Source: a virus. From it: a stretch of DNA of 22,855 bases. The first letter of the stretch is position 1; each line of letters opens with the position of its first letter. Below, one piece after another: positions 1,078 to 19,383 of this stretch. Both the position numbers and the translations under genes were made by a program. Under the pieces are notes generated by a model. That model ran no database searches. It was not told where the DNA came from and worked only from the letters and a program-made list of their open reading frames with translations. The DNA lies in IMG/VR virus record IMGVR_UViG_3300008107_000810, positions 1 through 22,855 of that record. One strand, 5' to 3'.

Positions 1078-1313
1078 GCGACATTGTGGACCGGTTGCGA
1101 GATGATCAGCCGGGAGAGCGCCAATGCGTGCGCGAAGCGCGCATGGATTTGGGAGGCTTGCTTATGGAAGCCGCCGACGAAATCGAAAAGCTGCGGGCGG
1201 CGCTGACCGAAGTGATGGTGTGGATCAATGAATGGGAACCAGCTTTCATTCAGGACGGAGAATGGCGGGAGACAAAACGGATGGTGCGCGCGGCGCTGGG
1301 AGAAAAGCAATGA
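1074..1313 (+). CDS. Ead/Ea22-like small protein with MSDIV head and ALGEKQ tail
   Basis: A 79-residue protein. The start overlaps the previous stop as ATGA, with GGGAGAAAAGGA just upstream as ribosome binding site. Three shared modules are visible: the head MSDIVDRL, the middle EAADEIEKLRAAL (about residues 32-44) and the tail VRAALGEKQ. Between them are unique segments, including VMVWINEWEPAF. The head and middle are typical of Ead/Ea22-like proteins of alphaproteobacterial phages. The role is unknown; a helical protein-interaction function is plausible. The DNA of the middle module recurs in at least four other genes of this chain. Confidence 0.65.
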   Translation: MSDIVDRLRDDQPGERQCVREARMDLGGLLMEAADEIEKLRAALTEVMVWINEWEPAFIQDGEWRETKRMVRAALGEKQ

Positions 1314-1969
1314 GCGACAACAATGGATGGCCCGACCCCGCGCGCCCTGGGGTGCCGCTGAACCCGGAGCGGGATGGGTGGCATTGGCTGGAATGGATGG
1401 ATTATTGCGGCACAAAACCAACCGGCATTATTGATCAATTCAAATGGGAACGCGATGGTTATTGGGATCGCACCACGCACCGGTCTGCACGATATTGGGC
1501 TTGTTGGCGCTACTTAGGCCCATGCCTGACGCCCGCCGAAGTGGATGCGCGCTTCAAGGAAGCCCGGCGCGATGCGCTGGAAGAAGCGGCGCGGGCGATG
1601 CAGCCGATGCTACGCAGTATGATTTCACGCGATGAGGCTGTACGCATAATCCGCGCGCTGACAGACACGCCACCCGGCACTTACGTCAGCAAAGCCGAAC
1701 AAGAGCGCGATGAATTTTTTAACCGCTTGGGTCGCATCACGGAGGACTTGCGCCTTCCCATGGACGCAACGGCGAGCCGGATCATCGAAGCTATCCGCGA
1801 GCGTGTGGATAACGAGCGCGAGGCGTGTGCTAGTGTTAGCGTTCATTTGAAGGTGCCGGAAGGAGCCGAAAATTGGACGCCGCTTGAGGCATGGGAAGAA
1901 GCGTTGATTGTGTTCGACGGGGCATTTCGTGACGCTATTCGTAGCCGCGCGCTGGGAGAAAAGCAATGA
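1310..1969 (+). CDS. phage accessory protein of unknown function, ALGEKQ tail
   Basis: A 219-residue protein. The frame is open further upstream, but the start at 1310 overlaps the previous stop as ATGA with GGGAGAAAAGCA upstream, exactly as in the neighbouring genes. The N-terminal third is rich in Trp, Gly and Pro (NGWPDPARPGVPLNPERDGW, then WLEWMDY and WACWRYLGPCLTP), a composition seen in phage accessory proteins. The central part has the module EARRDALEEAARA (about residues 84-96), present also in the genes at 3212 and 3457. The C-terminal part is helical and ends IRSRALGEKQ. It may be a fusion of two once separate modules. No catalytic motif was recognised. Confidence 0.65.
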   Translation: MSDNNGWPDPARPGVPLNPERDGWHWLEWMDYCGTKPTGIIDQFKWERDGYWDRTTHRSARYWACWRYLGPCLTPAEVDARFKEARRDALEEAARAMQPMLRSMISRDEAVRIIRALTDTPPGTYVSKAEQERDEFFNRLGRITEDLRLPMDATASRIIEAIRERVDNEREACASVSVHLKVPEGAENWTPLEAWEEALIVFDGAFRDAIRSRALGEKQ

Positions 1970-2187
1970 CGCAAGAAGAACTCGACGCCGTGCTGGCGGA
2001 TCATGAGTTATGGCTGGGAGAGAAGGGTGGAAAACGTGCAAACCTCTATGGAGCCAAGCTAGACTTCGCTGACCTGACAGGCGCCAGACTATGCGGTGCC
2101 AACCTCAATGCCACCAACCTTCATCGCGCCAAGATGAGAAACGCCGACCTCAATGGCGCCAGCCTGGTTTCCAAGGCGCAGAGATAG
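1966..2187 (+). CDS. pentapeptide-repeat protein, N-terminal part of a frameshifted gene
   Basis: A 73-residue reading frame with about nine consecutive pentapeptide repeats (A-D/N-L-x-x), for example ANLYGAKLDFADLTGARL and ANLNATNLHRAKMRNADL. Such repeats fold into a right-handed quadrilateral beta helix; some family members mimic DNA and bind gyrase, but nothing here shows that activity. The frame stops abruptly just after NGASL, and this is the only gene in the first half of the chain without the GEKE-type end. One additional base in the run GGTTTCC near 2166-2172 would join it to the following frame, giving SLVFQGAEIEGG and a protein of about 154 residues ending ARALGEKE. It is therefore probably a broken or frameshifted gene. 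Confidence 0.7.
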   Translation: MTQEELDAVLADHELWLGEKGGKRANLYGAKLDFADLTGARLCGANLNATNLHRAKMRNADLNGASLVSKAQR

Positions 2188-2210
2188 AAGGAGGAAGAAA
2201 AGTTATCCAG

Positions 2211-2429
2211 TTGCTCCGCCGTGCCATGCGTAGTGACGGGCAGGAATTGTTTTTGTGGCAAGGTATGGACGGGTTCTACATTAAATCCGGGCAGATGATC
2301 TTACCGATTGAGGAGGCTGCACCCTTTTGGGAAGAAACAAGGGGAGGCACCCCTCTTGGAGATGAGTGCTTGGACATTGTTGATATGTTCAAGAAAGCAA
2401 TCGCCCGCGCGCTGGGAGAAAAGGAATGA
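2211..2429 (+). CDS. C-terminal part of the frameshifted pentapeptide-repeat gene
   Basis: This frame contains RSDGQELFLWQGMDGFYIKS, then EEAAPFW and PLGDECLDIVDMF, and ends IARALGEKE. From memory, the pattern R-S-D-G, a hydrophobic strand, D-G, an A/S-G segment, a helix with W, and L-G-D-E follows pentapeptide repeats in other phage proteins. It has no convincing start of its own: a GGAGG lies at 2190-2194, but the nearest possible starts in frame are a TTG at 2211 and an ATG at 2226, both too far away. Reinitiation from the GGAGG is possible, yet a one-base deletion splitting a single gene is the simpler reading. The boundary given is therefore nominal. Confidence 0.5.
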   Translation: MLRRAMRSDGQELFLWQGMDGFYIKSGQMILPIEEAAPFWEETRGGTPLGDECLDIVDMFKKAIARALGEKE

Positions 2430-2644
2430 GCGACATTGTGGAACGCTTGAAATTTGCGTGCTGTGACGCAGAAGGCGAGCCGCTTGAGCCTGGGCAGTTG
2501 ATTAGTCCGCCTTTGAAAGATGTGCAATGCGCCATCATCGAAATAGAAAAGCTGCGGCGGGAAAACGAAATTATAGTGGGGATGATAAATGATATGGGAG
2601 CCATAGTCATAAAAGCCCGCGCCTCGCTGGGAGAAAAGGAATGA
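2426..2644 (+). CDS. Ead/Ea22-like small coiled-coil protein
   Basis: A 72-residue protein made almost entirely of modules shared with its neighbours: the head MSDIVERL, the middle IIEIEKLRRENEIIVGMIND and the tail ARASLGEKE. Residues 14-35 (around AEGEPLEPGQ and ISPPLKD) are unique. Its last 84 bases (2561-2644) are about 86 percent identical to the end of the gene at 2964. The start overlaps the previous stop as ATGA. The Leu/Glu/Lys heptad-like middle suggests a short coiled coil. The function is not known. Confidence 0.65.
   Translation: MSDIVERLKFACCDAEGEPLEPGQLISPPLKDVQCAIIEIEKLRRENEIIVGMINDMGAIVIKARASLGEKE
2561..2644 (+). repeat. 84-bp duplicated gene end, copy 1 (copy 2 at 3132-3215)
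   Basis: These bases are about 86 percent identical (12 differences by hand count, no gaps) to 3132-3215 and encode NEI-x-VGMINDM and following residues up to the stop. The genes differ upstream of the block. Confidence 0.8.
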
Positions 2645-2967
2645 AGAAGAAGCCCTGTCCATTTTGCGGTGGCAAACGCTTATCAATAACGAAATCGGAT
2701 TGCACTTGGCATGATCCTCCTATTGCATATGCCGTGTCGTGCGCTGGTGGTGACTGCCACGGACACATCTTCGCCCTTGGTCATGACCTATTCAAGACTG
2801 AAGAGGAAGCGATTGAGGCTTGGAATGAACGGGCTGAAACGGCAGAAATTAGAAAGCTAAGAGGGGCGTTGCTTGCGATTAAGGCGCATACACAAGACGC
2901 TCACCCCATGACATACATGGATCAACTTTTCCAAATCGCTCGCGCGGCTCTGGGAGAAAAGGAGTGA
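2641..2967 (+). CDS. Lar-like restriction-alleviation zinc ribbon protein with a chain-type C-terminus
   Basis: A 108-residue protein. Residues 1-62 follow the Lar family pattern: KKPCPFCGG (Cys pair near residues 5 and 8), a second Cys pair in SCAGGDC, then EEEAIEAWNERA. In the Lar/Ral family such proteins moderate type I restriction of incoming phage DNA; that role is inferred here from family membership. The rest (LRGALLAIKAHTQDAHPM to ARAALGEKE) is not part of Lar: it is the same 105-base segment that ends the gene at 4058, so a chain module has been fused behind the zinc ribbon. The start overlaps the previous stop as ATGA. Confidence 0.75.
   Translation: MKKKPCPFCGGKRLSITKSDCTWHDPPIAYAVSCAGGDCHGHIFALGHDLFKTEEEAIEAWNERAETAEIRKLRGALLAIKAHTQDAHPMTYMDQLFQIARAALGEKE
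2863..2967 (+). repeat. 105-bp duplicated gene end, copy 1 (copy 2 at 4181-4285)
   Basis: These bases are about 87 percent identical (14 differences by hand count, no gaps) to 4181-4285 and encode GALLAIKAHTQDAHPM and following residues up to the stop. About two thirds of the differences are synonymous. Upstream of this block the two genes are unrelated: one has a Lar-like zinc ribbon, the other an MSDIVERL head. Confidence 0.85.
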
Positions 2968-3215
2968 GCGACACAAGCACAAAGCGCGCGGAAGAAATAG
3001 CGTATAACCTCCAATTATCCGGGGTCAGCGGGTCAACTTGGAGGGCGACTGAGGTAGATGCTTCAAATATGTTAAGATCTTTAGCAGCGGAACGTGACGC
3101 TCTGCGGGCGGAACGGGATATGCTGAAGCGTGACAACGAAATAATGGTGGGAATGATAAATGACATGGCAACCATAGTCATCAAAGCCCGAGCGGCGCTG
3201 GGAGAAAAGAAATGA
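2964..3215 (+). CDS. small coiled-coil protein with GTG start
   Basis: An 83-residue protein starting with GTG inside GGAGTGA, which overlaps the stop of the Lar-like gene. The N-terminal part (TKRAEEIAYNLQLSGVSGST) is unique. The middle LAAERDALRAERDMLKRDNE is a charged coiled-coil stretch related to the one in the gene at 3457 (TERDALRAEIEKLRAAL). The end NEIMVGMINDMATIVIKARA is shared with the gene at 2426. The tail is ALGEKK. No function was recognised. Confidence 0.65.
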   Translation: MSDTSTKRAEEIAYNLQLSGVSGSTWRATEVDASNMLRSLAAERDALRAERDMLKRDNEIMVGMINDMATIVIKARAALGEKK

Positions 3216-3460
3216 CAGACATCGCAGATAAAATCTATGCCGCCACCGGACTGACGCTCAACGCAGAGGCGGCGGCAAAGATTGGGCAGATGATCCAGCA
3301 AGCCCGGCGGGATGCGCTGGAAGAATCGGCGTCACTGGTTGATGATGTGCATCAATGGGACGGTAGAGATGAGTATTGCGAAAGCTGTAAAGGCGGCGCG
3401 GTTTACCCTGACGCGCGAGATGTAGCCGCCATCATCCGTGCGCTGGGAGAAAAGGAATGA
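3212..3460 (+). CDS. small phage protein with ARRDALEE module
   Basis: An 82-residue protein. The start overlaps the previous stop (ATGA). It opens MTDIADKIYAATGLTLNAEA, followed by the helix AKIGQMIQQARRDALEESAS; the DNA of the ARRDALEE part matches the genes at 1310 and 3457. A YCESCKGGAVYPDARDVAAI segment contains a CxxC pair, which is too little to call a zinc site. The tail is IRALGEKE. The function is unknown. Confidence 0.6.
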   Translation: MTDIADKIYAATGLTLNAEAAAKIGQMIQQARRDALEESASLVDDVHQWDGRDEYCESCKGGAVYPDARDVAAIIRALGEKE

Positions 3461-3855
3461 GCGACATAAATGCAGCGCGAGTAAAAGAAGTGGCAGCTTT
3501 TTTTGAAAGCACTGCGACAACAGTTTCGGAAAATCCTGACGCTATTGAAAAGGGGCTGTATTTTATGTGCGTTGAAACCGCCGCCATGCTTCGCGCACTA
3601 GGTACAGAACGTGATGCGTTAAGGGCGGAAATCGAAAAGCTGCGGGCGGCGCTGCAAACCGCCCGGCGCGATGCGCTGGGAGAGTGCATTTCAATCTGCA
3701 ATGCAGTCGCCCACGCGAACCGCGTTGAATACCCTGCAAAGTGGAAAGATCGCCCCGAAGGCATTCCTCATGATTGGCAACAGGCGTGGGAGACTTGCGC
3801 TGAAACTGCGGAAGATATCGCCGCCACCATCCGCGCGCTGGGAGAAAAGGAATGA
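3457..3855 (+). CDS. accessory protein combining several chain modules
   Basis: A 132-residue protein that reads like a concatenation: a unique N-terminal helix region (MSDINAARVKEVAAFFESTA), the coiled-coil module ERDALRAEIEKLRAAL (about residues 51-66), the module ARRDALGE (about 70-77), then a unique segment (VEYPAKWKDRPEGIPHDWQQ) and the tail IRALGEKE. It is the longest intact helical member of the chain and shows most clearly that modules found singly elsewhere can occur together. The start and stop both form ATGA overlaps. The function is unknown. Confidence 0.65.
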   Translation: MSDINAARVKEVAAFFESTATTVSENPDAIEKGLYFMCVETAAMLRALGTERDALRAEIEKLRAALQTARRDALGECISICNAVAHANRVEYPAKWKDRPEGIPHDWQQAWETCAETAEDIAATIRALGEKE

Positions 3856-4061
3856 GCGATTGGGATAAACCCAAGGAGGATATGGTGAATGAAATGCTGG
3901 ATAGAAAAACCCTGATAAAAACCCAAGCAAAAGAAATCGAAAAGCTGCGGGCGGCGCTAAAAAAAATTAGTGTTACCGCAAGGCGGAAAGACGAAACACC
4001 AGAGGCGCTGCTAGTGGTATGTGATGCAATCGCCCGCGCTCCGCTGGGAGAAGGGCCATGA
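3852..4061 (+). CDS. small coiled-coil protein with EIEKLRAAL module
   Basis: A 69-residue basic protein. The start overlaps the previous stop (ATGA). After MSDWDKPKEDMVNEMLDRKT comes AKEIEKLRAALKKI, whose DNA is nearly identical to the middle module of the genes at 1074 and 3457. The end is IARAPLGEGP rather than GEKE, because the junction reads GGGAGAAGGGCCATGA. That is still a strong ribosome binding site, so the translation signal is kept while the peptide tail changes. The function is unknown. Confidence 0.6.
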   Translation: MSDWDKPKEDMVNEMLDRKTLIKTQAKEIEKLRAALKKISVTARRKDETPEALLVVCDAIARAPLGEGP

Positions 4062-4285
4062 GCGACATTGTGGAACGGCTGCGGGCGGATTTATCGTCAG
4101 GGCTATCAGCAAGCCTTGGCGACACAAAAGAAGCAGCCAACGAAATAGAAAAGCTGCGGGCAGAACGGCGCGCGATGCAGGGGGCGTTGCTTGCGATCAA
4201 AGCGCACACACAAGATGCACACCCTATGTCATACATGGATCAACTGTGCAGAATCGCCCGCGCGGCGCTGGGAGAAAAGGAATGA
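4058..4285 (+). CDS. Ead/Ea22-like small protein sharing its C-terminus with the Lar-like gene
   Basis: A 75-residue protein with head MSDIVERLRADL, middle EAANEIEKLRAERRAMQ and a C-terminal half (GALLAIKAHTQDAHPMSYMD to ARAALGEKE) shared with the Lar-like protein at 2641. The shared 105 bases (4181-4285) are about 87 percent identical to 2863-2967. Most differences are synonymous, so the shared part has been selected as protein. The start overlaps the previous stop (ATGA). The function is unknown. Confidence 0.65.
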   Translation: MSDIVERLRADLSSGLSASLGDTKEAANEIEKLRAERRAMQGALLAIKAHTQDAHPMSYMDQLCRIARAALGEKE

Positions 4286-4497
4286 AGTTTACCATGAAAG
4301 TAGCGGCAGTGTTTATGGCCCCGCTCATAGGGTTCTGCTGGGTATATGCGCTGGGCGAAATGGCAATGTATCTGTGGGAGTGGTCACTTCCAACTGCGCT
4401 TTTCGTTGCCGCATCAGTAACAATGATTCAAATAATGTTTGTATCATTTGCATTTGACGCTGGGTTTATAAAGAAAAACCCAGGAGAAAAAGAATGA
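4282..4497 (+). CDS. small two-span membrane protein, GEKE tail
   Basis: A 71-residue protein whose start at 4282 overlaps the previous stop as ATGA with GGGAGAAAAGGA upstream; the frame is open further upstream, but that part is not coding. Two hydrophobic segments are visible: VAAVFMAPLIGFCWVYAL near residues 7-24 and ALFVAASVTMIQIMFVSFAF near residues 40-60, separated by an acidic and aromatic loop. The C-terminus is FIKKNPGEKE, so even this membrane protein keeps the chain's tail. Size and topology would suit a holin, but the lysin gene is 2 kb downstream and no specific holin family is recognised. Confidence 0.6.
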   Translation: MKFTMKVAAVFMAPLIGFCWVYALGEMAMYLWEWSLPTALFVAASVTMIQIMFVSFAFDAGFIKKNPGEKE

Positions 4498-4703
4498 GCG
4501 AACTTCGAGTGGTCACTGGCCGCGCTTCAGATTGGAGCGGCCTATGGATCGCCGCCGTCTTGCTTGACAACACGGTCATGACGATTGGCTATGAGGAAAC
4601 ACAAGAAGAAGCACTGGCATGGGGGCAGAAAGCTATGGAAGCCCGCGCATGGGAGGGCGAGAACAAAGATCCTCCCGATTACTACGAAAGGAAAAAGCAA
4701 TGA
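4494..4703 (+). CDS. small phage protein, unknown function
   Basis: A 69-residue protein; the start overlaps the previous stop (ATGA) after GGAGAAAAAGA. It opens MSELRVVTGRASDWSGLWIA, followed by a hydrophobic strand, YEETQEEALAWGQKAMEARA and a charged end, YYERKKQ. The E-E-A-L-x-W helix next to strands looks like a small alpha/beta domain. The GEKE tail is replaced by ERKKQ, because the junction is GAAAGGAAAAAGCAATGA. The function is not known. Confidence 0.55.
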   Translation: MSELRVVTGRASDWSGLWIAAVLLDNTVMTIGYEETQEEALAWGQKAMEARAWEGENKDPPDYYERKKQ

Positions 4704-5071
4704 CCGACATCGTGGAACTTCTTCGCTCCGTGGCACACACATACGATGAGCATGGTGTGCATTCTGAGATTGAACTAGAGGCAGCAAAAGAAATAGAAAG
4801 GCTCCGCAAATACTTCGCCAAAGCCGAAGAGGAGATGAAGATTGCTGACCGCAATAGAATCTTCTTTCAGAAAGAGTATGAGCGGTGGATGAATATGAGC
4901 CAGGAACTGAATGATTATACCATTCAGCTAGAGACAGCCATTTTCAATTACGTCAACACAGTAATGTATTGCGAAGGCGTGACATTTATTGATGGCCTTG
5001 ATGATGAGTGGGCGAAGTTGATATGCGATGTCTGGAAAGAGCAGCGCAAGAAGATGGAGGAAAAGGAATGA
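4700..5071 (+). CDS. Ead/Ea22-like coiled-coil protein
   Basis: A 123-residue protein. The start at 4700 is the ATGA overlap with the previous gene; the frame extends upstream but without a signal. It opens MTDIVELLRSVAHTYDEHGV, then AAKEIERLRKYFAKAEEEMK, a long helical stretch to about residue 80, and a C-terminal part with YVNTVMYCEGVTFIDGLDDE. It ends KKMEEKE, a diverged version of the chain tail (junction GGAGGAAAAGGAATGA). Head and middle clearly relate it to the genes at 1074, 2426 and 4058. The function is unknown. Confidence 0.65.
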   Translation: MTDIVELLRSVAHTYDEHGVHSEIELEAAKEIERLRKYFAKAEEEMKIADRNRIFFQKEYERWMNMSQELNDYTIQLETAIFNYVNTVMYCEGVTFIDGLDDEWAKLICDVWKEQRKKMEEKE

Positions 5072-5445
5072 TCAAGCTTGCAATGCAGATTCGTGAAGGC
5101 GCGTATTACCGGACGCGGGGCGGCGATGTTGTTGGGCCGATGCAACCAAGCAAGCGTGAAAAACTCGGTGGTTGGATTGGTATTGATCACTCTTGGTATG
5201 AGGATGGTCGTTTCCTCAATAGCGGCGCGCAACATATACTCGACCTAATCTCCGAAGTCTATGTCAGCGACACGCCGCCTGATGCGCCATTGCCTGACAT
5301 TATCACAGATCAGCCATGCAAAACCCTGCGCGATGAATTTGCGATGGCACTAATGAAGGCGGATGATTTTATGGTTGGCTTCAAAGAACACGCGGAGCAG
5401 TTATACCGCGCAGCCGATGCAATGATGGAGGCGCGGAAGAAGTGA
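5068..5445 (+). CDS. phage accessory protein with YYRTRGGDVVGP motif, unknown function
   Basis: A 125-residue protein; the start at 5068 overlaps the previous stop as ATGA, after GGAGGAAAAGGA. The first part, MQIREGAYYRTRGGDVVGPM followed by GWIGIDHSWYEDGRFL, is a beta-rich domain of a kind seen in many phage and prophage accessory genes (Y-Y-x-T-R-G-G-x-V-V-G-P), with no known role. After a Pro-rich linker (SDTPPDAPLPDI) comes a helical end, MKADDFMVGFKEHAEQLYRA. It ends in EARKK, not GEKE, and the downstream gene uses a GTG start. Confidence 0.6.
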   Translation: MIKLAMQIREGAYYRTRGGDVVGPMQPSKREKLGGWIGIDHSWYEDGRFLNSGAQHILDLISEVYVSDTPPDAPLPDIITDQPCKTLRDEFAMALMKADDFMVGFKEHAEQLYRAADAMMEARKK

Positions 5446-5600
5446 GCGACGAACAACTAGCGCGCGCGGAAATGTTGCGCGCCGCCACCGAAATCGAAAA
5501 GCTGCGCGCTGCTGTGCAGGATTTGGCAAAGCACATCTGGCGCGGCGATTGGGATAAGCTGAAGCCGGAAACACGCGAGTTGCTGGGAGAAAAACAATGA
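5442..5600 (+). CDS. 52-residue coiled-coil protein with GTG start
   Basis: A very short gene that begins with GTG inside GTGA, which overlaps the previous stop. The product starts MSDEQLARAEMLRAA, continues TEIEKLRAAVQDLAKHIW and ends LKPETRELLGEKQ. It contains the MSD head, the EIEKLRAA middle and the LGEKQ tail, in the same order as larger chain members, and its 3' end (5585-5600) is the standard junction. This makes it the minimal version of the family. The shared modules at both ends make it convincing despite its size. Confidence 0.65.
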   Translation: MSDEQLARAEMLRAATEIEKLRAAVQDLAKHIWRGDWDKLKPETRELLGEKQ

Positions 5601-5791
5601 GGTGGAAGGCAATAGACAAGACCGATTGGCATAGGGTGTTCGCTTGGCTTCCGGTAGAAACCGTATGCAAGACCATGGTTTGGCTTGAGTGGGTTGAATA
5701 CAGAGACAAGAACTGGGAGCAAATCGCTTTTGGGCATATTATTCGCAGGCCCGCTCAGTATCGGTTGATAGATATGGGAGAGAAAGAATGA
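5597..5791 (+). CDS. small Trp-rich phage protein, unknown function
   Basis: A 64-residue protein rich in Trp and aromatic residues: WHRVFAWLPVETVCKTMVWL, then EWVEYRDKNWEQIAFGHIIR. The W-L-P-V and V-W-L-E-W pattern resembles small one-domain phage proteins of unknown role. The tail is LIDMGEKE. Start and stop both lie in ATGA overlaps. No catalytic residues are evident. Confidence 0.55.
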   Translation: MRWKAIDKTDWHRVFAWLPVETVCKTMVWLEWVEYRDKNWEQIAFGHIIRRPAQYRLIDMGEKE

Positions 5792-6030
5792 ACATCACCG
5801 TTGAAGAGTTAATGTCTTTGATGAAGGAAATCCGGGCAGAGGCTTTTAAGGAAGCCGCAATGGAAGCCCGTGTTACGGGGAAGAGGCATGAGCAAGCGGG
5901 GTATCGTATGGGCTTCACGCCCACCATTGGCGGAGCAACCGTAGCTATTCATCAGGTTCTCTTGGCGTTAGCAAAAGGCGAGCGACGCACTCCCGAAGAA
6001 GCTATCCGCGACATGGGAGAGAAAGAATGA
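5788..6030 (+). CDS. small helical phage protein, unknown function
   Basis: An 80-residue protein: MNITVEELMSLMKEIRAEAF, then a charged helix, KEAAMEARVTGKRHEQ, then a Gly-rich segment, GYRMGFTPTIGGATVA, and a hydrophobic helix. It ends AIRDMGEKE with junction GGGAGAGAAAGAATGA. It resembles the previous gene only in its 3' end. The function is unknown. Confidence 0.55.
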   Translation: MNITVEELMSLMKEIRAEAFKEAAMEARVTGKRHEQAGYRMGFTPTIGGATVAIHQVLLALAKGERRTPEEAIRDMGEKE

Positions 6031-9850: not shown

Positions 9851-10672
9851 ATGAGTGACCTAGACCTAACACCCGTCATTCGTTTGACGAAAGACCTAAA
9901 GAACGCAGCGAGAACATTGTCTGATGACGAGGCTCGTTTCCTTGTTGATGCGTATTACGCAATGCAGGATGACCGCATTCGTGCTGCCCACCAACACAGA
10001 AGCCTGACCGAATCCGGCGAACCCGCCGATGTCATGACATGGCTCCTCGACCAGCGGGAGATCCTTGAGAAGCAAGTCGCCCGCGCCCTGGACGCTTATA
10101 GTGGCAGTAACCAAGTCGGCGCTTGGATGCGCTCTATCGTGGGGATTGGGCCTGTCATATCGGCTGGGATGCTGGCCCATATCGACATTACCAAGGCACC
10201 CACCGTGGGGCATATCTGGCGCTACGCTGGTCTCGATCCCACCCAGACCTGGGATAAGGGGCAGAAGCGGCCATGGAACGCCCGCCTCAAGACGCTCTGC
10301 TGGAAGATCGGGGAGTCCTTCGTGAAGGTGTCGGGCAACGAGAACGACATCTATGGGAAGGTCTATAAGGAACGCAAAGAGATCGAGTTGGCGCGCAACG
10401 AGAACCTTGAGTTCTCAGCGCAGGCCAAGAGCATCCTTGAGCGCAAGAAGTTTGGGGCAGATACCCAGGCCAAGAAGTTCTACGAGGCCGGCAAACTTCC
10501 TCCTGCCCACATCCACGCCAGGGCAAAGAGATACGCCGTGAAGCTGTTCATCTCACACCTTCACCATGTCTGGTGGGAAATCTCCACGGGCGAAAAGCCT
10601 GTAAAGCCGTATGTCCTTACCCACATGGACCATGCCCATTATATCGCGCCGCCTAACTGGCCAATGAAGTAA
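9851..10672 (+). CDS. IS110-type Tnp_20 domain protein lacking the RuvC domain
   Basis: A 273-residue protein after GAGGGGAATAAAC. Residues 60-90 are a coiled-coil-like helix; 96-130 (IVGIGPVISAGMLAHIDITK to YAGLDP) match the helix-hairpin-helix start of the Transposase_20 domain of IS110/IS116 transposases. The next part (QTWDKGQKRPWNARLKTLCW) sits where those enzymes carry S-G and their catalytic serine; here I see Thr and no clear equivalent. The N-terminal DEDD/RuvC domain of IS110 transposases is absent, there are no obvious element ends, and the C-terminus (VWWEISTGEKPVKPYVLTH) is different. It is thus a phage protein that uses only the DNA- or RNA-handling half. It lies directly before the 18-bp repeat array. 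The domain call is fairly secure; the function is unknown. Confidence 0.7.
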   Translation: MSDLDLTPVIRLTKDLKNAARTLSDDEARFLVDAYYAMQDDRIRAAHQHRSLTESGEPADVMTWLLDQREILEKQVARALDAYSGSNQVGAWMRSIVGIGPVISAGMLAHIDITKAPTVGHIWRYAGLDPTQTWDKGQKRPWNARLKTLCWKIGESFVKVSGNENDIYGKVYKERKEIELARNENLEFSAQAKSILERKKFGADTQAKKFYEAGKLPPAHIHARAKRYAVKLFISHLHHVWWEISTGEKPVKPYVLTHMDHAHYIAPPNWPMK

Positions 10673-10684
10673 TCCGTCAATGTC

Positions 10685-11631
10685 GAGAGTTCCAAAAAGG
10701 CAGAGAGATCCATTGTGGATGAGAGCGCCTTGGTCGAGAAGAGAACCAGCACTAGCGAAAGCTACAAGCTACTTGAGTGAACCAGAACCGCAGGGAGTGC
10801 CATTGTGCTGAAGTGAACCATTCACAGCGAGAGTTCCAACATAGGTAAGTGAACCATTGATTAGGATAGCGCCGAGGAGAATGAGTGAATCAGATCACGC
10901 TAGAGTTCCATGACGCGAAAGTGAATCACGCTGGAAGAGGGTTCCATGACTCGCGAGTGAACCATGCCCGGAGAAAGTAACTGCGCCGCTAAGTGAGACA
11001 TCCAGCCAGACAGTAACGAGAAAGAAGATCGAACCATGCGTCGAAGAGAGTTCCATGGTCGTCGAGTGAACCATCGTAATCGAGAGTACCAACGTCGAGA
11101 AGTGAACCGGACCTCTTGAGAGTTTCAGAGCAATGAAGTGAACCATGTCGTCAGATAGTTTCCAATCGGCTGAGTGAGCCATCATGATGGAGAGTGCCAA
11201 CTTTTAGGAGTGAACCATTCGGATGGAGAGTGCCATCGAGAAGGAGTGAACCATCACAAAAGAGAGTTCCAGCGGGACAAAGTGAACCATCGAAACGGAG
11301 AGTGCCATAAAGCGAGAGTGAACCATCATGTAAGAGAGTTCCATAAAGTTAGAGTGAATCACAAGGTTTAAAAGTTCCATCAGCCGAGAATGAACCATGC
11401 ACAATGAAAGCTACACGCAAGATGAGTGAACCATACGCATCGAGAGTTCCAAAAGGGCAAAGTGAATCATTACAAGCGAGAGTTTCAACACCTTCGAGTG
11501 ATCCATAGAGAGTGAGAGTTCCAGAGAGGTGAAGAGAACCATGTCAAGAGAGAGTGCCATCATTTTTGAGTGAACCATATAAATTGAGAGTTCCAATTCT
11601 TGGGAGTGATCCACCACAGAAGAGAGTGCCA
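10685..11631. repeat. array of 53 18-bp units of two alternating types
   Basis: This fills the 979-base gene-free stretch between 10673 and 11651. Each unit is a 10-base conserved box plus an 8-base variable spacer. Boxes alternate strictly between type A (consensus GAGAGTTCCA, often GAGAGTGCCA) and type B (consensus GAGTGAACCA, with AAG and AATCA variants), so the full period is 36 bases. A and B differ at three positions, each an A/T swap (consensus GAGWGWWCCA). Twenty units occupy 10685-11036; one extra base follows, and 33 more run from 11046 to 11631 with alternation kept. The first base of the spacer is often T; otherwise the spacers look unrelated to each other. The units on the left (near 10721, 10865, 10973 and 11009) are more decayed than those on the right. 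No promoter or gene was recognised inside. Confidence 0.93.
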
Positions 11632-11651
11632 TTGAAGACGAGGCAAGGAAG

Positions 11652-12420: not shown

Positions 12421-12733
12421 AATGCTGGGTCATGCTGCCACCCTGGTATCGGGGCAGAGGGCTATTGACTATGGCGACAAGACCATCAACCATGAACGCA
12501 TCGCAAGCTTGTGGAATTTCTGGCTTCAGGAAACCCGCAAGGGTGAAAACTTCCTGTCTGAAAGCCCAGACCTCAAGGCATACGATGTTGCCATGATGAT
12601 GCTGCTTCTGAAGGTCGCCCGTCTGATGCACTCCCCGGGACACCGCGATAGCCATGTCGATATTGCTGGCTACGCGGCAATCCTAGAAGAGATCAATAGT
12701 CCGCAATTTGTCGAGTCAACGAAGCCTTTTTAG
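12407..12733 (+). CDS. DUF6378-like phage protein
   Basis: A 108-residue protein. The start at 12407 follows GAGAGAGG at seven bases; an upstream TTG is less likely. The pattern GEMLGHAATLVSGQRAIDYG, then HERIASLWNFWL, AYDVAMMMLLLKVARLMHSP, and HVDIAGYAAI matches the DUF6378 family, widespread in phages. The all-helical pattern with acidic and His residues recalls MazG-like or dCTPase-like enzymes, but activity is not established. It is the last + strand gene, and its stop codon overlaps the stop of the giant - strand gene. Confidence 0.75.
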   Translation: MKAGEMLGHAATLVSGQRAIDYGDKTINHERIASLWNFWLQETRKGENFLSESPDLKAYDVAMMMLLLKVARLMHSPGHRDSHVDIAGYAAILEEINSPQFVESTKPF

Positions 12734-12739
12734 AAGGCT
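12723..12739. terminator. small hairpin at the convergent gene ends
   Basis: AGCCTT and AAGGCT pair over a TTTAG loop (6-bp stem) exactly across the two overlapping stop codons. On neither strand is it followed by a convincing T-run, so it is a weak candidate for a bidirectional terminator. Its position between two long convergent transcripts is the main argument. Confidence 0.35.
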
Positions 12740-15700
12740 CCGATGTTTCGGGCTTGATCAACCACCCGTTTCGCCACCTGATCGCGCCGCCTAATCAGCG
12801 GCTCGATTGCATTGGCCTTATCCAAGGCATCTCTATCACTGCGCTCGATCATTCGTATCCGCTTGTTGAGGTCGGCAATCTGCTCAGATGCGGTGTTCAC
12901 AGAAGAACGCAACCGGAGGGGCAGACCGGCCTCGCCCTGAAGTTCCGTCAGACGCTCAAAGTCCCGAGCCTGCCGAGCAAGGTTCTGAGACCGAACAAGC
13001 TGGTCCGTCATCTCCTTGATCTTGTAGAAGTCACCCACAAATCGGCTGACCATCTGTTCATCTTCACGGTAGAACCTCTGCATCCCAGCAAAGTTGGCAA
13101 GGATTGCGGGCATAGATGAAGGATCGCCAAACGCCCCAGCAGGCTTCCCTGGTATCAGACCGCCAGCAGCCAGGATACTATCAAACCCCGCCATCAACGA
13201 AGCCCCCAGCGTTCCTGTATAGCCGTCTAGCAGGGCCTGAGCCTTGATAGGGCTAAGAATATCGCCAAAGATAGAGTTGACCACGGCAGACAAAGCCTCA
13301 CCCGTCTTGGTGGTGCTGCGGTTAATGCGCTCACCAACCGGAAGGGCCTGCTCACCCTTGGTCTCAAGGGGTCTGCCACGGAAGAAGTCATAGTTGGTGA
13401 AGGCACCGAGGATCGGGTCAATCGCCTTGGGGATGGGGTTCATCCAGAAGGTGTTTTTCCCAACCTCAACCAAAGCCTCGGCCAAATCCTTACCCTCACC
13501 ACGGCGAATCGCATCGAGGACAAAGATCGGCAGCGCACCAAAAACCTGACCGATTTCAAACGCCCGAGGCAGGGTGATGTAGTTACCCATGAATGGGATG
13601 ATGTCGTAGTTGAGTTTCATGTAAGGCGGGATCTTGTCCCACTTTTCCTCGTCATCCTCTAAGTTCAAGCCATAGGCCATGAGAGAAAATGCGGTAAGAA
13701 CAAGTCCACGCAGGAAAATTTGCTGTGGAATACCAAGGGTCCACAGCCTGCGCTTGTCGCCCTTTTCATTTTCAACAAGGCGATAGGTCGTCTGCAATTT
13801 TGCGTTCAAGAACGGCACAAGCGGCATCATGAACTGCATACTGGCGCCCAGCCACCCTTCGCCCGTTCCACGACGAGAATAAGGAGCAAGAAGATACCCC
13901 TGGAAATCAGCGTCTTCCTGGCTCATTCCTTTTTTGACAAGATTTTCTGATAGCTTCAGGCGCTCTGCCATTTCGGTGGCTTCTGAAAGCTCCTGCATTT
14001 TACCGTAAGCCTGCCTTATGGCAGACAGAGCTTTGCCTTTGGACAGCGACTTCATAATGCCTTCGTCAGTAAGCTTCCGGGCAAAAATCTTGGCCATGTT
14101 CCTTGGCTCCATCCCGTACTCCATACCGCCAAAGCCGGTCTGAAGTGCGAAGTTTTGCGCGGACTCGCTGGCATTCAGGAAATCGCGTACACCCGCCAGG
14201 GTGTTAGTCGTAAATGGCTGCCCCTCCTGAACATAGGCAGAGATCTTGCCTTTGTAGAGGTTGGAGAAGATGAAGGATGGTGCGCTTGTAACGAAATCAC
14301 GGAAGATAGCCGCCGTCTTTGCCATGGTATTGTAGATACCGTTCTGCATGGTGCGGGGCATACCAGCCAGCGCACTAAACAGAGCCGCATCCTCAACATC
14401 AAAGGCAATGTCCTTGCCATTAACCTTATAGGTGATGGTGTTCTCGTTCTTCGTGCCTGTAAGGTTTTTCTTCCCAAGCTTTGCAAACTCCATGACCTCG
14501 GCAGAGGTCTTCATGGCAAGGTTCTTCAACCCGGCCTTCATGATCGAGTCTGCATTTAAGATGATATTGGAAATCAAATCGCCCAACGGGCTTTCGCCGC
14601 CCTTTAGTTCGCGGTTAATCGCGCTCGCTACGTTGGTGAAGCTTTCTCCAATTCTAGGTGATACGGAACGGCTTGGCTCCGCAGTAATGTCCTTCTCCAT
14701 AATCCGATAAAACGGAGTATAGAATACATCGCGCAGCTTCTGAGACTGATCCTTACTTATGATGCCGGTATCAACAGACCAGTCAATAAGCGCGTTATTG
14801 AGCTTATCAATGTCCGCTGCTGTTTGCTTCCAATTCGGATGCTTGGCTTCGGCAGTATTGATAGCATCTAATACAGCGCCGTCTGGTATATTTGTGAAAC
14901 CCTGCCTTCCATTCTTCCGAAGGTCACGTTCCTTCAGGGCGGCAAGATAAACTTGCAACTCGTTTATGTCGTCTGGATTTTTTACCCCAGCATCTTTCAT
15001 GATGGTGAACAGAGGCTTAACATCCCTGCGTGGAGTAATTCTTCCCGTTACAGGGTCTATCCTGCCCATAGCTTGAAAGAGCATTTGCTGAACGCGGGCA
15101 GTATTGGTCAGCGCCATTTCCATAGCGCGCCCAGCAGAGCGCCCAGTGTAACCGTTCGCAGAAGCCATCTCGTCTGCGTTGTACAAGCCAGCCGCGCGAT
15201 TTATGGTGGTGCGGGCAATCGCCGCTCCAGGACTTTCACCCTTCTTCTTGTCAATAAGAACCGACAGAACCTTATCGAGAAGCCCCATCTTTTCGGCTTC
15301 TGGAATTACCGCCTTATAGAAATCAGCAGCACTACCGAGCGGCAGCTTTGGCTGAGGAGGCGGCGGAGTGGGCTGTTGTGGCGCTGGAGTAAGGAGCGTT
15401 GGACCTGGAGGCTGAGGTGGCTGCGTGGGCGCACGAGAAGCCTCGATCTCAGTCTCAGGAGCCTGGACAAGAGCGGTCCCAGCAGAGAACTCCATGGAAA
15501 GCTGCTTGGGCTTCTTGGTCCAACCCTTCGTCTTAACGGGGTCAAACATCGGAGCCTCAGTCGGGTCCGTGCTGAGGAGGTGGCGCTTGCGATGATCCTC
15601 GATGAACTTGGCAACGGTTTGGTTTGGCAAACCAACATCACCCATAGCTGCCACAATCTTCCGATAAGCAGCGGCGATCTTTTGGAAGAACCGGCCCATG

Positions 15701-18700
15701 AGGCTTTCGGCTGGCTTGGAAACCAAAGACCACCGAGCAACCTGATCAGCAAACCACTCACTAAAGCTGAGGTAGTAAGAATCTAGCGTCTGATATGCAG
15801 GGCTATTCGGGTAGCCGCTTGCGATCTTCTTCCCAACAACTGCCGTCCTCAAGAGCTTGATGTATTGAGGGGTCGGAAGCTTCTTGTTCTTTAATAGCCA
15901 CTGGTCAAACGCATTCATCACCTCATTGACGGTTGCGTTTGATTCCTTCTTGAGAATTTGCTTGTCAAAGACATGGCCAATTTCATGAGCTAAGGTTTCA
16001 ATTTGTTGAGAAAGGCGAACATCATCTTTGATTGCGATTGTGTATGCGTTTTCTCCAACGCGACTTATGGTTACACCAAAATAATCCCCCTCACGGTAGT
16101 ATGCCGCACGGCGAGAACGAAACCAATCATCGCCATACAGATTATTTCTTTCGGCGTAGTCAGGGTCTTTCGTTCCATTGAAGGTGGTGAAGAAAATCTT
16201 GGCATCAGACATACCAAGCTCTTTGAGAAGCTCAGATGTCCACCCACGCAGTCTTTCTGGAAACGATTTATCGAAGCCGATATTAGACCCCACAGGAATC
16301 GGGCCGTTTGGATTCTGTTTGATGCGCTGATTTGCGCGAGCAACAGCATCCTTCTTGGCCTCCCTCATGCGGTCCAAAATAAACTCAGGAACAAACGGGC
16401 CGTTGTATTTATCTACATCAATCAACGCACCCTTATCTCGGGTCGTCTGCCCGTTAGTCATGGCCCCGAAGTAAACCGGGTTCCCGTTTCGATCAATGCC
16501 CTCAAGGATTGCGAAGTCTTTGTCTTGATAGACAATAGGCGCGTAGTGCCTGCGCGAGTATTCTTGAATGGGATTGACCGCTGATGCGGGGGAAACAGAA
16601 GGCTCTTCTACAGTCTCAATAGGACGACCACGCGAGAACATAGCCGTCTGGTCTGGATTAAGAGACGCAAGGATAGCTTGCTCTGGAGTAATGCGCCGCT
16701 CTTTGCCAACCAAATCAACATCAGGTGTTTGGGTGGCAGCTTCTTCCGCGTAAGCCTTTAGACGACGAGTAATAGCTGCCTTGGAGGCAACCTTACTCAT
16801 GTTGTCATTAGACATGAGGCGAATAATGGACGCCTCTAGTGGAGTGACGGGATTCATCATGTCCTCAATCTTGAGGACTTCCGCAGGGGTCATGCCCCTG
16901 TCACGACCAGACCTAATCCTATCAGACGCCCGCACAATATCAGGAACAATGTTGAACTCTTCCCTGATGCGGCCAGACTCAACTCCTCTGCGGAGAGCGA
17001 GCATTGAGGGCGTTGCGTTGACCATTGCGCCCGTGATGGATTTTAGGTCATCGTCCGCGCTGCTGATGGACTTTTCTAAAAGGGTTTGATCGTTATATGC
17101 CGCAGCAAATAAAGCTCGGTTAATTCTATTGATACCGTCAGGAAGAAGCTTTCCGCTTTTAGCATCAATGAAATCACTGAGGTCGTTTCCAGAAGAAATC
17201 GCATTAACAAAATCATTAACGAACCCGCGATTCTTTGCGGCTTCAATCCCAGCCTCTAACGTCCCGTCAAACTTAGCCAACAACTGATCGGTTAAAGCCT
17301 CAGCGTCTTCACGGGCCAACTCGACAGGGCCTAGGTTTTGGCTGGCGCTTTTGTTGGCAGCTTTTACAAACCGAACACGCTGGTTCTCATCAAGGTCCGT
17401 TAAGCGGCGGCGCACCAGAACCGGAAACTGCATCCCGGCAGTATCATACCCAGCGTTCTGAAGAGACTGAACATAGGCCCTGAACCCTTCTGGGTTGTTC
17501 TCAGCAGCCTTTTTCAGACCAGCAATACGGTGGTTGCCCACCTCAACGATGTTATCTGCCCCAACAACCGGAGCGCCACGATCCGCGTATTGGCTGGTGG
17601 TAAGCTGAGAGAAGTCGGGGCGATTGGCGATCTTTGAGATCAGAAGCTCATTGGCTTTGGCGTCAATGTTCCTGTTCTGAAGCCTGCCGCTGGCTGGAGT
17701 GAGAGAATACAGATCCACAACCTCTGGCACCACATCAACAGACATGGTTTGCCCACCAGGGCCGGGCGGCGTGATGACGGGGAACTGAGTTCCTACGGGA
17801 ACATTGAATGAGACAAACTGAGGGGGCGCCACAGACGCAGGCGGCTCAACAACGGGAGCGGCTTCTTGCTGCTCAGGGGCTTGAGTGGTTAGGGTCTCTG
17901 GTGGCTGTGGGTTTTGAGACTCCCACTGCCAAAACCTATTCATAATATCTACGGGAGACGGCAGATTGGCAGCGTCAGGACCACCAGCAGCGCGGCGCCT
18001 TTCGTTGTCAATAATCTCTTTCTCGACATCGCCGAGTGTTGCGGCCCTACGTTCTTGCCAATCGGTGTATGCCGGATTCACTTGCTCTTGAGGTGCAGCA
18101 GGGACAGCAGCGGGGATGGGCGGGGCTGGCGGAACAGCCTCAGTCGGCGCAGGAGGGACCGGAGGGGGTGGGGTTACAGCAGGAATGGCCGGGCCAGCAG
18201 TGGGCGGGGCTGGAGATGCAGGAGGAGCGGGAGGTGCAGCGGGGGGCGGCGGTGCGCCGGGAGGAGTGACTTGCGCTTCGGGGCGGCTAATTGCCCCAGA
18301 AACGCCACCCAGAACTGCGCCAAGAGCGGCCCCAGTTGCGGCCTGTCCTGCAACGCCACGGCTAATATCGCGCTCAACATCAGCCCGGAGGGCAGCAATG
18401 TTTTGTGACGCCCTACCCCCACCTTCTTCGATACCTTCCTGAAGGGCTTCCCATCCAGAGGTTCCGAGAACACGGGAAATAATGCTGCGTTTAGCGTTCC
18501 CAACCAACAGAGCTTTTTCTGCGCCGGGAAGAACAGCCATGGTCCCAGCAGAAATACCGCCACCCATAATACCAGCAAGGCGAGCGCCTTCAGTGGCAAG
18601 CTGCTGACGAGCTTCTTCTGGTGAGAGCCTTTCGACAAGAGCCTGATAGTTTGGACTTGCGTTCAGAACTTCAGGAGCCAAGCCCATGATGTCCTGATAA

Positions 18701-19383
18701 GTCTGATTTGCAACTTCGCCGCCCTGCAACCCAGCGCCGGAACCAACGGCTGCTGCTAGACCAGCCCTTTGCCCAGCCTCAGCCGCAGCCCTCTCGGCAC
18801 CAACAGCGGCGGCTCTCGCTCCTGTTCGACCAGCGATTTGACCAGCGGCTGTTGCGACTCGACCAATTCCAAAAGACGCAAGAAGCTGAGGAATTTGCTC
18901 GACAGCCATAGACCCAAGCAGCCCCGGGTTTTGCGCTAAGGTGGAAACCACAGCACCGACTTCTTCGCGGAACCCTTGGCCCTCAGCTTCTTTTAATGCT
19001 TGGTCCAGAAGCTGTCTTTTTTGGATAAGCTCGGGAGACATGAGGCTTTCGCCTGCCCCCCGAATACTTTGCCCAAGGCGAGTAAGGGGATTGTCAAAAG
19101 ACCCAGTGCCAATACCAACAATCCCGCCAAGCCCACTAGCAATACCGCCAAGCCCAGATACAGTAGAGCCAGCAACATCTCCAACCCGCGCACCAATCGT
19201 TCCAAGGAAACCCCTTTCTGGAATAGGCGCCGGAGCAGCAGGCCCCATCGGCTCTTCTGAAACCTGTCTTGACGCACGAGCTTGGGGTAGAATATCTCGC
19301 TCAATGGCTTGAACAATTTGATCTCCAGACATGGAGTCTGGAAATTGAATCGGGCCAAGCCCAGGAACTTCAATAGTTGGCAT
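12730..19383 (-). CDS. giant polyvalent protein: ParB-like, zincin and LPD38-like domains
   Basis: A 2,217-residue protein started by ATG after GGGAG. Visible order: a short N-terminal motif (MPTIEVPGLGPIQFPDSMSG); Gly/Ala-rich hydrophobic segments (residues ~70-350); a Pro-rich linker (~367-440); a DdrB-like ParB domain (~560-690) with NIDAKANE, GAPVVGADNIVEVGNHRIAG and an N-x-S region; a zincin-type metallopeptidase with HEIGH at 1133-1137 and a likely third ligand, E1209, in SFSEWFADQ; a second Pro-rich linker (~1318-1348); a long LPD38-like region with a hydrophobic stretch near 1888-1905; and a C-terminal coiled coil. This is the layout of large polyvalent proteins, which are thought to be packaged in the virion and injected with the DNA to act on host factors. 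It lies downstream of virion-type genes on the same strand. The target of the peptidase is unknown. Confidence 0.85.
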   Translation of the reverse strand: MPTIEVPGLGPIQFPDSMSGDQIVQAIERDILPQARASRQVSEEPMGPAAPAPIPERGFLGTIGARVGDVAGSTVSGLGGIASGLGGIVGIGTGSFDNPLTRLGQSIRGAGESLMSPELIQKRQLLDQALKEAEGQGFREEVGAVVSTLAQNPGLLGSMAVEQIPQLLASFGIGRVATAAGQIAGRTGARAAAVGAERAAAEAGQRAGLAAAVGSGAGLQGGEVANQTYQDIMGLAPEVLNASPNYQALVERLSPEEARQQLATEGARLAGIMGGGISAGTMAVLPGAEKALLVGNAKRSIISRVLGTSGWEALQEGIEEGGGRASQNIAALRADVERDISRGVAGQAATGAALGAVLGGVSGAISRPEAQVTPPGAPPPPAAPPAPPASPAPPTAGPAIPAVTPPPPVPPAPTEAVPPAPPIPAAVPAAPQEQVNPAYTDWQERRAATLGDVEKEIIDNERRRAAGGPDAANLPSPVDIMNRFWQWESQNPQPPETLTTQAPEQQEAAPVVEPPASVAPPQFVSFNVPVGTQFPVITPPGPGGQTMSVDVVPEVVDLYSLTPASGRLQNRNIDAKANELLISKIANRPDFSQLTTSQYADRGAPVVGADNIVEVGNHRIAGLKKAAENNPEGFRAYVQSLQNAGYDTAGMQFPVLVRRRLTDLDENQRVRFVKAANKSASQNLGPVELAREDAEALTDQLLAKFDGTLEAGIEAAKNRGFVNDFVNAISSGNDLSDFIDAKSGKLLPDGINRINRALFAAAYNDQTLLEKSISSADDDLKSITGAMVNATPSMLALRRGVESGRIREEFNIVPDIVRASDRIRSGRDRGMTPAEVLKIEDMMNPVTPLEASIIRLMSNDNMSKVASKAAITRRLKAYAEEAATQTPDVDLVGKERRITPEQAILASLNPDQTAMFSRGRPIETVEEPSVSPASAVNPIQEYSRRHYAPIVYQDKDFAILEGIDRNGNPVYFGAMTNGQTTRDKGALIDVDKYNGPFVPEFILDRMREAKKDAVARANQRIKQNPNGPIPVGSNIGFDKSFPERLRGWTSELLKELGMSDAKIFFTTFNGTKDPDYAERNNLYGDDWFRSRRAAYYREGDYFGVTISRVGENAYTIAIKDDVRLSQQIETLAHEIGHVFDKQILKKESNATVNEVMNAFDQWLLKNKKLPTPQYIKLLRTAVVGKKIASGYPNSPAYQTLDSYYLSFSEWFADQVARWSLVSKPAESLMGRFFQKIAAAYRKIVAAMGDVGLPNQTVAKFIEDHRKRHLLSTDPTEAPMFDPVKTKGWTKKPKQLSMEFSAGTALVQAPETEIEASRAPTQPPQPPGPTLLTPAPQQPTPPPPQPKLPLGSAADFYKAVIPEAEKMGLLDKVLSVLIDKKKGESPGAAIARTTINRAAGLYNADEMASANGYTGRSAGRAMEMALTNTARVQQMLFQAMGRIDPVTGRITPRRDVKPLFTIMKDAGVKNPDDINELQVYLAALKERDLRKNGRQGFTNIPDGAVLDAINTAEAKHPNWKQTAADIDKLNNALIDWSVDTGIISKDQSQKLRDVFYTPFYRIMEKDITAEPSRSVSPRIGESFTNVASAINRELKGGESPLGDLISNIILNADSIMKAGLKNLAMKTSAEVMEFAKLGKKNLTGTKNENTITYKVNGKDIAFDVEDAALFSALAGMPRTMQNGIYNTMAKTAAIFRDFVTSAPSFIFSNLYKGKISAYVQEGQPFTTNTLAGVRDFLNASESAQNFALQTGFGGMEYGMEPRNMAKIFARKLTDEGIMKSLSKGKALSAIRQAYGKMQELSEATEMAERLKLSENLVKKGMSQEDADFQGYLLAPYSRRGTGEGWLGASMQFMMPLVPFLNAKLQTTYRLVENEKGDKRRLWTLGIPQQIFLRGLVLTAFSLMAYGLNLEDDEEKWDKIPPYMKLNYDIIPFMGNYITLPRAFEIGQVFGALPIFVLDAIRRGEGKDLAEALVEVGKNTFWMNPIPKAIDPILGAFTNYDFFRGRPLETKGEQALPVGERINRSTTKTGEALSAVVNSIFGDILSPIKAQALLDGYTGTLGASLMAGFDSILAAGGLIPGKPAGAFGDPSSMPAILANFAGMQRFYREDEQMVSRFVGDFYKIKEMTDQLVRSQNLARQARDFERLTELQGEAGLPLRLRSSVNTASEQIADLNKRIRMIERSDRDALDKANAIEPLIRRRDQVAKRVVDQARNIGAF

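What the first reader, a model, noticed from the sequence alone, without database searches (positions are those of the whole stretch)
10685..11631. A 53-unit, 18-bp array with two strictly alternating boxes in a gene-free stretch
Seen directly: 10-base boxes every 18 bases, alternating GAGAGTTCCA and GAGTGAACCA, separated by 8-base spacers that look unrelated. It is not CRISPR (units far too short), not a simple tandem repeat (spacers not conserved) and not an insertion sequence. The two boxes differ only by three A/T swaps, as if two related sites are recognised by one protein in two states or by a heterodimer. Iteron arrays at origins and partition sites have units of similar size but are normally much shorter. 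Possible roles, all inferred: origin or partition site, protein-loading scaffold, decoy for a host factor, or a structured RNA.
Basis: seen in the sequence. Interest (0 to 1): 0.9.

Follow-up and report, generated by a model that had tools for sequence, protein, structure and literature searches.

The report
Phage RNA-guide array (TIGR) with TasA
The repeat array is a bank of 27 short guide RNAs of the recently described TIGR-Tas type, read out by the Nop-domain protein TasA made by the gene just in front of it; the kind of system is known, but what such nuclease-less systems target in nature is an open question, and a related system in a bacterial genome gives a first candidate target.

Summary
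The array is real: 53 ten-base boxes on an 18-bp grid, 10685-11631, plus a truncated box at each end (10667, 11640). It is a dual-repeat TIGR array (Faure et al. 2025, PMC12045711). The gene touching it (9851-10672) encodes a nuclease-less Nop-domain protein, TasA: its best solved relatives are TasR and TasH (E 3e-15 and 1e-9; fold Z 18-19).

GAGTGAACCA is the edge repeat and GAGAGTTCCA the loop repeat, giving 27 guide RNAs of 36 nt with two 8-nt spacers each. The new evidence is compensatory change inside the array: bases 7 and 8 of every edge repeat pair with bases 4 and 3 of the next, 54 of 54 (shuffled order 43 +/- 2, 0 of 100,000). G-U pairs fix the transcript on the + strand. The rule recurs in arrays of many other phages. 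Related phages gain and lose whole guide units.

No targets of the window's guides were found in 3.4 Mb of phage DNA. In a homologous prophage system (Acidobacteriaceae KBS 96), one of six guides exactly matches one site in the 6.7-Mb genome: the excisionase-like gene of a different element whose capsid resembles the prophage's own. A candidate, not proof. Verdict: new member of a known kind, with a testable lead.

The parts
9851..10672 (+). tasA: 273-aa Nop-domain (IS110 RNA-binding-domain-like) protein without a nuclease domain
   Evidence: PDB 9mty TasR E=3.3e-15, TasH E=1.2e-9; Pfam Transposase_20 above cut-off; model fits TasH Z 19.4 and TasR Z 18.1 from residue 21-24 on
10667..10676 (+). 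first, 5'-truncated edge repeat AAGTAATCCG, overlapping the tasA stop codon
   Evidence: its base 7 (T) pairs with base 4 (A) of the next edge repeat at 10703
10685..11631 (+). TIGR array: 27 loop repeats (GAGAGTTCCA type) alternating with 26 full edge repeats (GAGTGAACCA type), 8-nt spacers
10672..11644 (+). 27 predicted tigRNA units, 36 nt each (one of 37 nt, 11032-11068): half edge, spacer A, loop, spacer B, half edge
   Evidence: edge-to-edge pairing 54/54; alignment A2 of 26 units without gaps
11640..11649 (+). last, 3'-truncated edge repeat GAGGCAAGGA
   Evidence: pairs G-U with the edge at 11604; the equivalent truncated edge in L071/L074 is GAACGAAAGG

Best explanation
A phage-borne TIGR-TasA system. 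Shown by sequence: tasA, the array directly behind it, the 36-nt unit, its edge/loop structure, the + strand orientation and the whole-unit turnover. Inferred from the TIGR-Tas literature: the transcript of tasA and the array is cut inside each edge repeat into 36-nt tigRNAs. One tigRNA sits in a TasA homodimer, with the edge repeat (its two halves paired) on one protomer and the loop repeat on the other. Spacer A pairs with one strand and spacer B with the other strand of a DNA site of the form spacerA + 0-2 nt + reverse complement of spacerB. Lacking a nuclease, TasA would bind and bend the site and so block a gene or replication. Most speculative: the targets are rival mobile elements (related phages or satellites in the same host). 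The confidence given is for the identification as a TIGR-TasA guide system; for the rival-element role see the section on the most novel reading.
For: Protein: closest solved structures are TasR (3.3e-15) and TasH (1.2e-9), 3e-25 and 4.6e-15 with the family profile, then IS621; model pLDDT 85, Z 19.4 TasH, 18.1 TasR, 13 IS621, 7.5 Nop5p. Array: 54/54 edge pairs vs 43.1+/-1.6 on shuffled order, with T-A, G-C, A-T, T-G and G-T replacements. The same rule, for one parity only, holds in many other arrays: L031 66/66 vs 53.7, L016 44/44 vs 31.8, L059 33/34 vs 20.2, L011 54/58 vs 41.6. The experimentally studied SpTIGR array of Salicola phage CGphi29 has the same 10+8 layout and 22/22 edge pairs. 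A Tas-like ORF lies beside the array in 44 loci. Within-unit spacer pairs are co-inherited (48 together, 16 split) more than spacers across units (29, 55), OR 5.7. TasA is under strong purifying selection: 1 aa change against 20% divergence at fourfold sites, window vs L057. Role: in KBS 96 one guide has an exact zero-gap match in an xis-like gene of another element.
Against: No transcript or tigRNA has been seen for this phage. No terminator or promoter was found at the array. In 7 of 27 loop repeats the 3-8 pair is broken, so some units may be dead. No targets were found for the window's guides. Box D is AG rather than the UG of TasR arrays. The role rests on one candidate target in another organism; chance of at least one exact hit for those six guides was about 0.04 before its location is considered.
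Confidence: 0.93

Rival explanations
1. DNA-level protein-binding array (iterons of an origin, a partition or centromere site, or a decoy): a protein binds the double-stranded boxes.
For: Unit size resembles iterons; regular 18-bp spacing.
Against: Spacers are unit-specific and co-inherited in pairs. Compensatory changes couple bases 7/8 of one edge box with bases 4/3 of the next, including G-U pairs that would be A-C mismatches on the other strand: an RNA signature. TasA is adjacent in dozens of loci.
Confidence: 0.03
2. TIGR locus, but serving the phage itself (regulating its own genes, replication or integration) or the host chromosome, not rival elements.
For: TasA lacks a nuclease; PMC12045711 suggests regulation or help to integrases.
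Against: No excess of matches to the phages' own contigs over re-paired spacers; whole-unit turnover resembles adaptation to changing targets; the only exact genomic match found lies in a foreign element.
Confidence: 0.3
3. A decaying, non-functional TIGR locus.
For: Several degenerate boxes between 10721 and 11027; 7 of 27 loop pairs broken.
Against: 54/54 edge pairs intact, TasA protein almost unchanged despite 20% fourfold divergence, and shared spacers differ at only 2.8% of bases between window and L057.
Confidence: 0.05
4. snoRNA-like guides acting on RNA (a TasA RNP without methyltransferase).
For: Nop fold shared with box C/D proteins.
Against: TasR and TasH act on DNA and TasR not on RNA (PMC12045711); no RNA target was looked for here.
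Confidence: 0.06

Closest known systems
TIGR-TasH of Salicola phage CGphi29 (SpTIGR; PMC12045711; PDB 21kl, 9vzx, 9w04)
   Same: 10-nt alternating repeats + 8-nt spacers, 36-nt unit, edge AAGCGAGCCA / loop AAGACAACCA, one-base slip, truncated edges at both ends, edge pairing 22/22; homologous Nop domain
   Different: SpTas carries an HNH nuclease and its array has 11 units and a terminator; the window protein has no nuclease, 27 units and no terminator found
TIGR-TasA (e.g. Flavonifractor plautii FpTIGR, PMC12045711)
   Same: solo Nop-domain effector with a dual-repeat array
   Different: array about twice the 5-15 units the paper calls usual; repeat sequences not compared directly (supplement not available)
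TIGR-TasR (PDB 9mty)
   Same: Nop domain over TasR residues 111-322, Z 18.1; box C CCA in both repeats
   Different: no RuvC domain; box D AG instead of UG; 8-nt instead of 9-nt spacers
IS110/IS621 bridge-RNA recombinases
   Same: related RNA-binding domain (profile E 8e-5, Z 13); hence the database label 'transposase'
   Different: no DEDD recombinase domain, no bridge RNA; an array of guides instead

Membership tests
TIGR-Tas, dual-repeat type | Nop-domain Tas protein encoded next to the array | tested here: met
   array starts at the tasA stop codon
TIGR-Tas, dual-repeat type | two distinct alternating 8-12-nt repeats separated by ~9-nt variable spacers (8 in SpTIGR) | tested here: met
   10-nt repeats, 8-nt spacers; same layout in SpTIGR
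TIGR-Tas, dual-repeat type | 36-nt repeating unit (edge, spacer A, loop, spacer B) | tested here: met
   26 of 27 units are 36 nt, one 37
TIGR-Tas, dual-repeat type | base pair between edge halves additional to the box C/D pair, supported by covariation | tested here: met
   54/54 pairs, shuffled 43.1; 100% of cells, 7 double changes vs 1.7
[quoted passage not shown]
   GAG...CCA in both; relatives L077/L078 have CCG in both. Box D is AG, not UG
TIGR-Tas, dual-repeat type | array bounded by truncated edge repeats (typical) | tested here: met
   10667 and 11640; L071/L074 end in GAACGAAAGG
TIGR-Tas, dual-repeat type | rho-independent terminator after the array (typical, not defining) | tested here: inconclusive
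   none found by a consensus scan in the window; present as a GC hairpin in the relative L171 and in SpTIGR
TIGR-Tas, dual-repeat type | array processed into 36-nt tigRNAs bound by Tas; dual-strand DNA targeting | not testable with these tools
   needs RNA-seq and binding assays
TasA subtype | no HNH or RuvC nuclease domain | tested here: met
   only ~21 residues precede the Nop domain (TasR has 110, TasH 64); no nuclease family in Pfam or PHROGs
CRISPR array | one repeat of 25-36 nt with spacers of similar length | tested here: not met
   two 10-nt repeats, 8-nt spacers
IS110 transposon | DEDD recombinase domain plus Transposase_20 domain | tested here: not met
   only the Transposase_20/Nop part is present

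The most novel reading that the evidence does not exclude
Nuclease-less TIGR-TasA arrays of phages are weapons against related rival elements or satellites: their tigRNAs bind, without cutting, regulatory genes such as excisionase, and whole guide units are gained and lost as the rivals change.
Probability: 0.35. Interest if true: 0.88.

Novelty: new member of a known kind. Interest (0 to 1): 0.62.

Why it matters
TIGR-Tas was described in 2025; its natural targets, the role of the nuclease-less TasA and the way arrays change are stated there as open. Covariation inside one array gives a sequence-only test that tells edge from loop, the transcribed strand and the guide pairing, usable on any uncharacterised array. 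Close relatives with shared and replaced units show how arrays turn over. The KBS 96 match names one concrete guide-target pair that can be tested directly.

Tried and rejected
Targets: 751 guides against 1.73 Mb of phage DNA, including close relatives, no excess over re-paired spacers in either orientation. Own contigs: none. Three guides kept in several relatives were scanned through IMG/VR (55, 77 and 74 hits, the order expected by chance), and other guides of the family do not hit the same contigs. Halomonas sp. NO4, 1.53 of 4.0 Mb, seven guides: no exact match; one-mismatch matches 4 against 0.83 for re-paired spacers, not conclusive. Rfam: no match. Plasmids: no TasA relative. The - strand open frames over the array were taken as by-products of box composition. 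The 11652 gene was considered as a partner and set aside, as it is absent at that place in L071/L074. Iterons, partition site, CRISPR and insertion sequence were considered and rejected.

Full report
Observation. The window is a 22,855-base virus record. From 10685 to 11631 ten-base boxes lie on an 18-bp grid: 53 slots, odd slots like GAGAGTTCCA and even slots like GAGTGAACCA, with eight nearly random bases between. 45 slots are within two mismatches of a box; the rest are degenerate. The grid slips once, by +1, between 11027 and 11046. A two-box pattern with up to two mismatches gives 34 forward matches and none on the other strand or for the reversed control. The array also reaches a little further than described: a partial even-type box lies at 10667, over the stop codon of the upstream gene, and another at 11640.

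The neighbour. The gene 9851-10672 is labelled 'transposase' in PHROGs and passes Pfam Transposase_20. Its best solved relatives are TasR (9mty, E 3.3e-15) and TasH (21kl and others, E 1.2e-9); with a 25-member profile, 3e-25 and 4.6e-15, then IS621 at 8e-5. The AlphaFold2 model (pLDDT 85) matches TasH at Z 19.4 over 220 residues, TasR at Z 18.1 over 194 residues (28% identity), IS621 at about 13 and Nop5p at 7.5. The match begins at residue 21-24 of the model but at residue 111 of TasR and 64-66 of TasH, so the nuclease domains of those proteins have no counterpart. This is a TasA.

What the array is. Faure et al. 2025 (PMC12045711; [quoted passage not shown] A Nop-domain Tas protein is encoded alongside; arrays begin and end with truncated edge repeats. 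I read the array of Salicola phage CGphi29, a system that paper tested, as a yardstick: same 10+8 layout, edge AAGCGAGCCA, loop AAGACAACCA, even a one-base slip.

Edge and loop, strand and unit, from covariation. In the published structure the two halves of the edge repeat pair within one tigRNA, so base pairs should link successive edge repeats of the array. In the window, taking GAGTGAACCA as edge, base 7 of each edge pairs with base 4 of the next and base 8 with base 3 in 54 of 54 cases. Shuffled order gives 43.1 +/- 1.6 and none of 100,000 shuffles reached 54. Changes are compensatory: for example GAGAGATCCA (10703, T7) is followed by AAGAGAACCA (10739, A4), and AAGTGAGACA (10991, G7 A8) by GATCGAACCA (11027, C4 T3). 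Pairing within the same repeat, with the edge two further on, or in reverse order is much poorer, and the other box type shows nothing. The independent pair counter gives 100% paired for this helix, seven cells changed on both sides against 1.7 by shuffling for the whole named structure, and nothing comparable for slid partners. Five pairs are G-U on the + strand, which would be A-C mismatches on the other strand; so the transcript is the + strand and the constraint is on RNA. The array thus encodes 27 tigRNAs. The loop pair 3-8 is weaker: 20 of 27 kept.

Generality. A scan of IMG/VR for two boxes found 61 stretches, many in arrays. Exactly one parity of most arrays obeys the edge rule, whatever the edge sequence (GAGTGAACCA, GAACGAGTCA, GAGCGAGCCG, GAGAGATCCA): for example 66/66 vs 53.7 in L031, 44/44 vs 31.8 in L016, 33/34 vs 20.2 in L059. 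A Tas-like open frame was found beside the array in 44 loci. In L077/L078 box C has become CCG in both repeats. Some large phages carry several arrays of more than 30 slots each.

Turnover. The relatives L057, L070 and L012 have TasA proteins with 0-4 amino-acid differences from the window's but different arrays. Shared units keep their order; blocks of one or more whole [edge-spacer-loop-spacer] units are present or absent, and unshared spacers are simply different. Two spacers of one tigRNA are kept together (48 together, 16 split) more than neighbouring spacers of different tigRNAs (29, 55): OR 5.7, p 1e-6, though the comparisons are not independent. In units shared with L057 the spacers differ at 2.8% of bases, against 20% at fourfold sites of tasA and 3 of 38 in the downstream gene. 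This suggests, but because shared units were chosen by similarity does not prove, selection on the spacers. The system is accessory: 28 of 29 relatives by an ejection-protein gene had no TasA match, although many are fragments. In one (G006) the same place, between homologues of the genes at 9575 and 12007, holds other genes.

Targets. The paper's cleavage geometry (8-nt 3' overhangs) implies a target strand reading spacerA + 0-2 nt + reverse complement of spacerB; this orientation is my derivation. No excess over re-paired spacers was found in 1.73 Mb of viral DNA, in own contigs or in 1.7 Mb around chance hits of three kept guides. TasA relatives also occur in bacterial genomes, among them the isolate Acidobacteriaceae bacterium KBS 96 (61% identity, six-unit array). 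All six guides were searched in its 6.7-Mb genome. Guide 2 has a single exact, zero-gap match at C1:6329962-6329977; the other orientation of this guide has none. The site lies in the first codons of an 86-aa excisionase/Cox-like gene (PHROG 66, Pfam HTH_17) of another element, about 7 kb long, with integrase, repressor, replication-like gene, small terminase subunit, capsid and protease. That element's capsid is about 74% identical in amino acids to the capsid of the TasA-bearing prophage. A second guide matches the same element at 14 of 16 positions with zero gap, both mismatches at the outer end of spacer A; such a match is expected about 0.02-0.07 times in an element this size (my estimate), and re-paired guides give 1.2 matches of that quality per 100 kb, so it adds little. 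Chance of an exact match anywhere for the six guides was 0.042; that it falls in a rival element makes chance less likely, but the location was judged afterwards. I treat it as a candidate. A second genome (Halomonas sp. NO4, 38% held) gave nothing clear.

Mechanism. Shown: protein identity, unit, strand, edge pairing, turnover. Inferred from the family: processing, dimer loading, dual-strand DNA recognition. Speculative: non-cleaving silencing of rival elements.

Verdict. A new member of a known kind (dual-repeat TIGR-TasA), on the long side with 27 units. What is added is the within-array covariation test, the pattern of unit turnover, and one candidate natural target.

Noticed in passing
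window 1048-6030: A run of small genes whose stop/start junctions share a 25-nt sequence (GCTGGGAGAAAAGGAATGA type, 13 copies), so that many of the small proteins end in ALGEKE or similar; looks like exchangeable gene cassettes.
   Followed up: partly
L172 17860-18370 (relative G006, same genomic place as tasA and array): A gene-poor tract with a 5-bp-periodic C[TG]CNN pattern in place of the TIGR locus; unexplained.
   Followed up: partly
L031, L037, L044, L045, L020: Other phage contigs with one very long array or several arrays: 69 slots in a row in L031 and about 80-120 slots in total in several others, far above the 5-15 units called usual.
   Followed up: partly
L407 5.6-12.05 kb (Acidobacteriaceae KBS 96): Compact 7-kb element with integrase, repressor, excisionase-like gene, small terminase subunit, capsid and protease but no large terminase or portal seen: possible capsid-carrying phage satellite.
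   Followed up: partly
window array, loop repeats (e.g. 10757, 11406): Loop consensus G-AG[TC]N-C resembles an AGNN tetraloop closed by G-C; two loops have the same odd variant GAAAGCTACA kept in relatives.
   Followed up: no
window 12730-19383 (-): One 2217-aa open frame; the relative L172 has one of 2912 aa: very large protein of unknown role, possibly carried in the virion.
   Followed up: no
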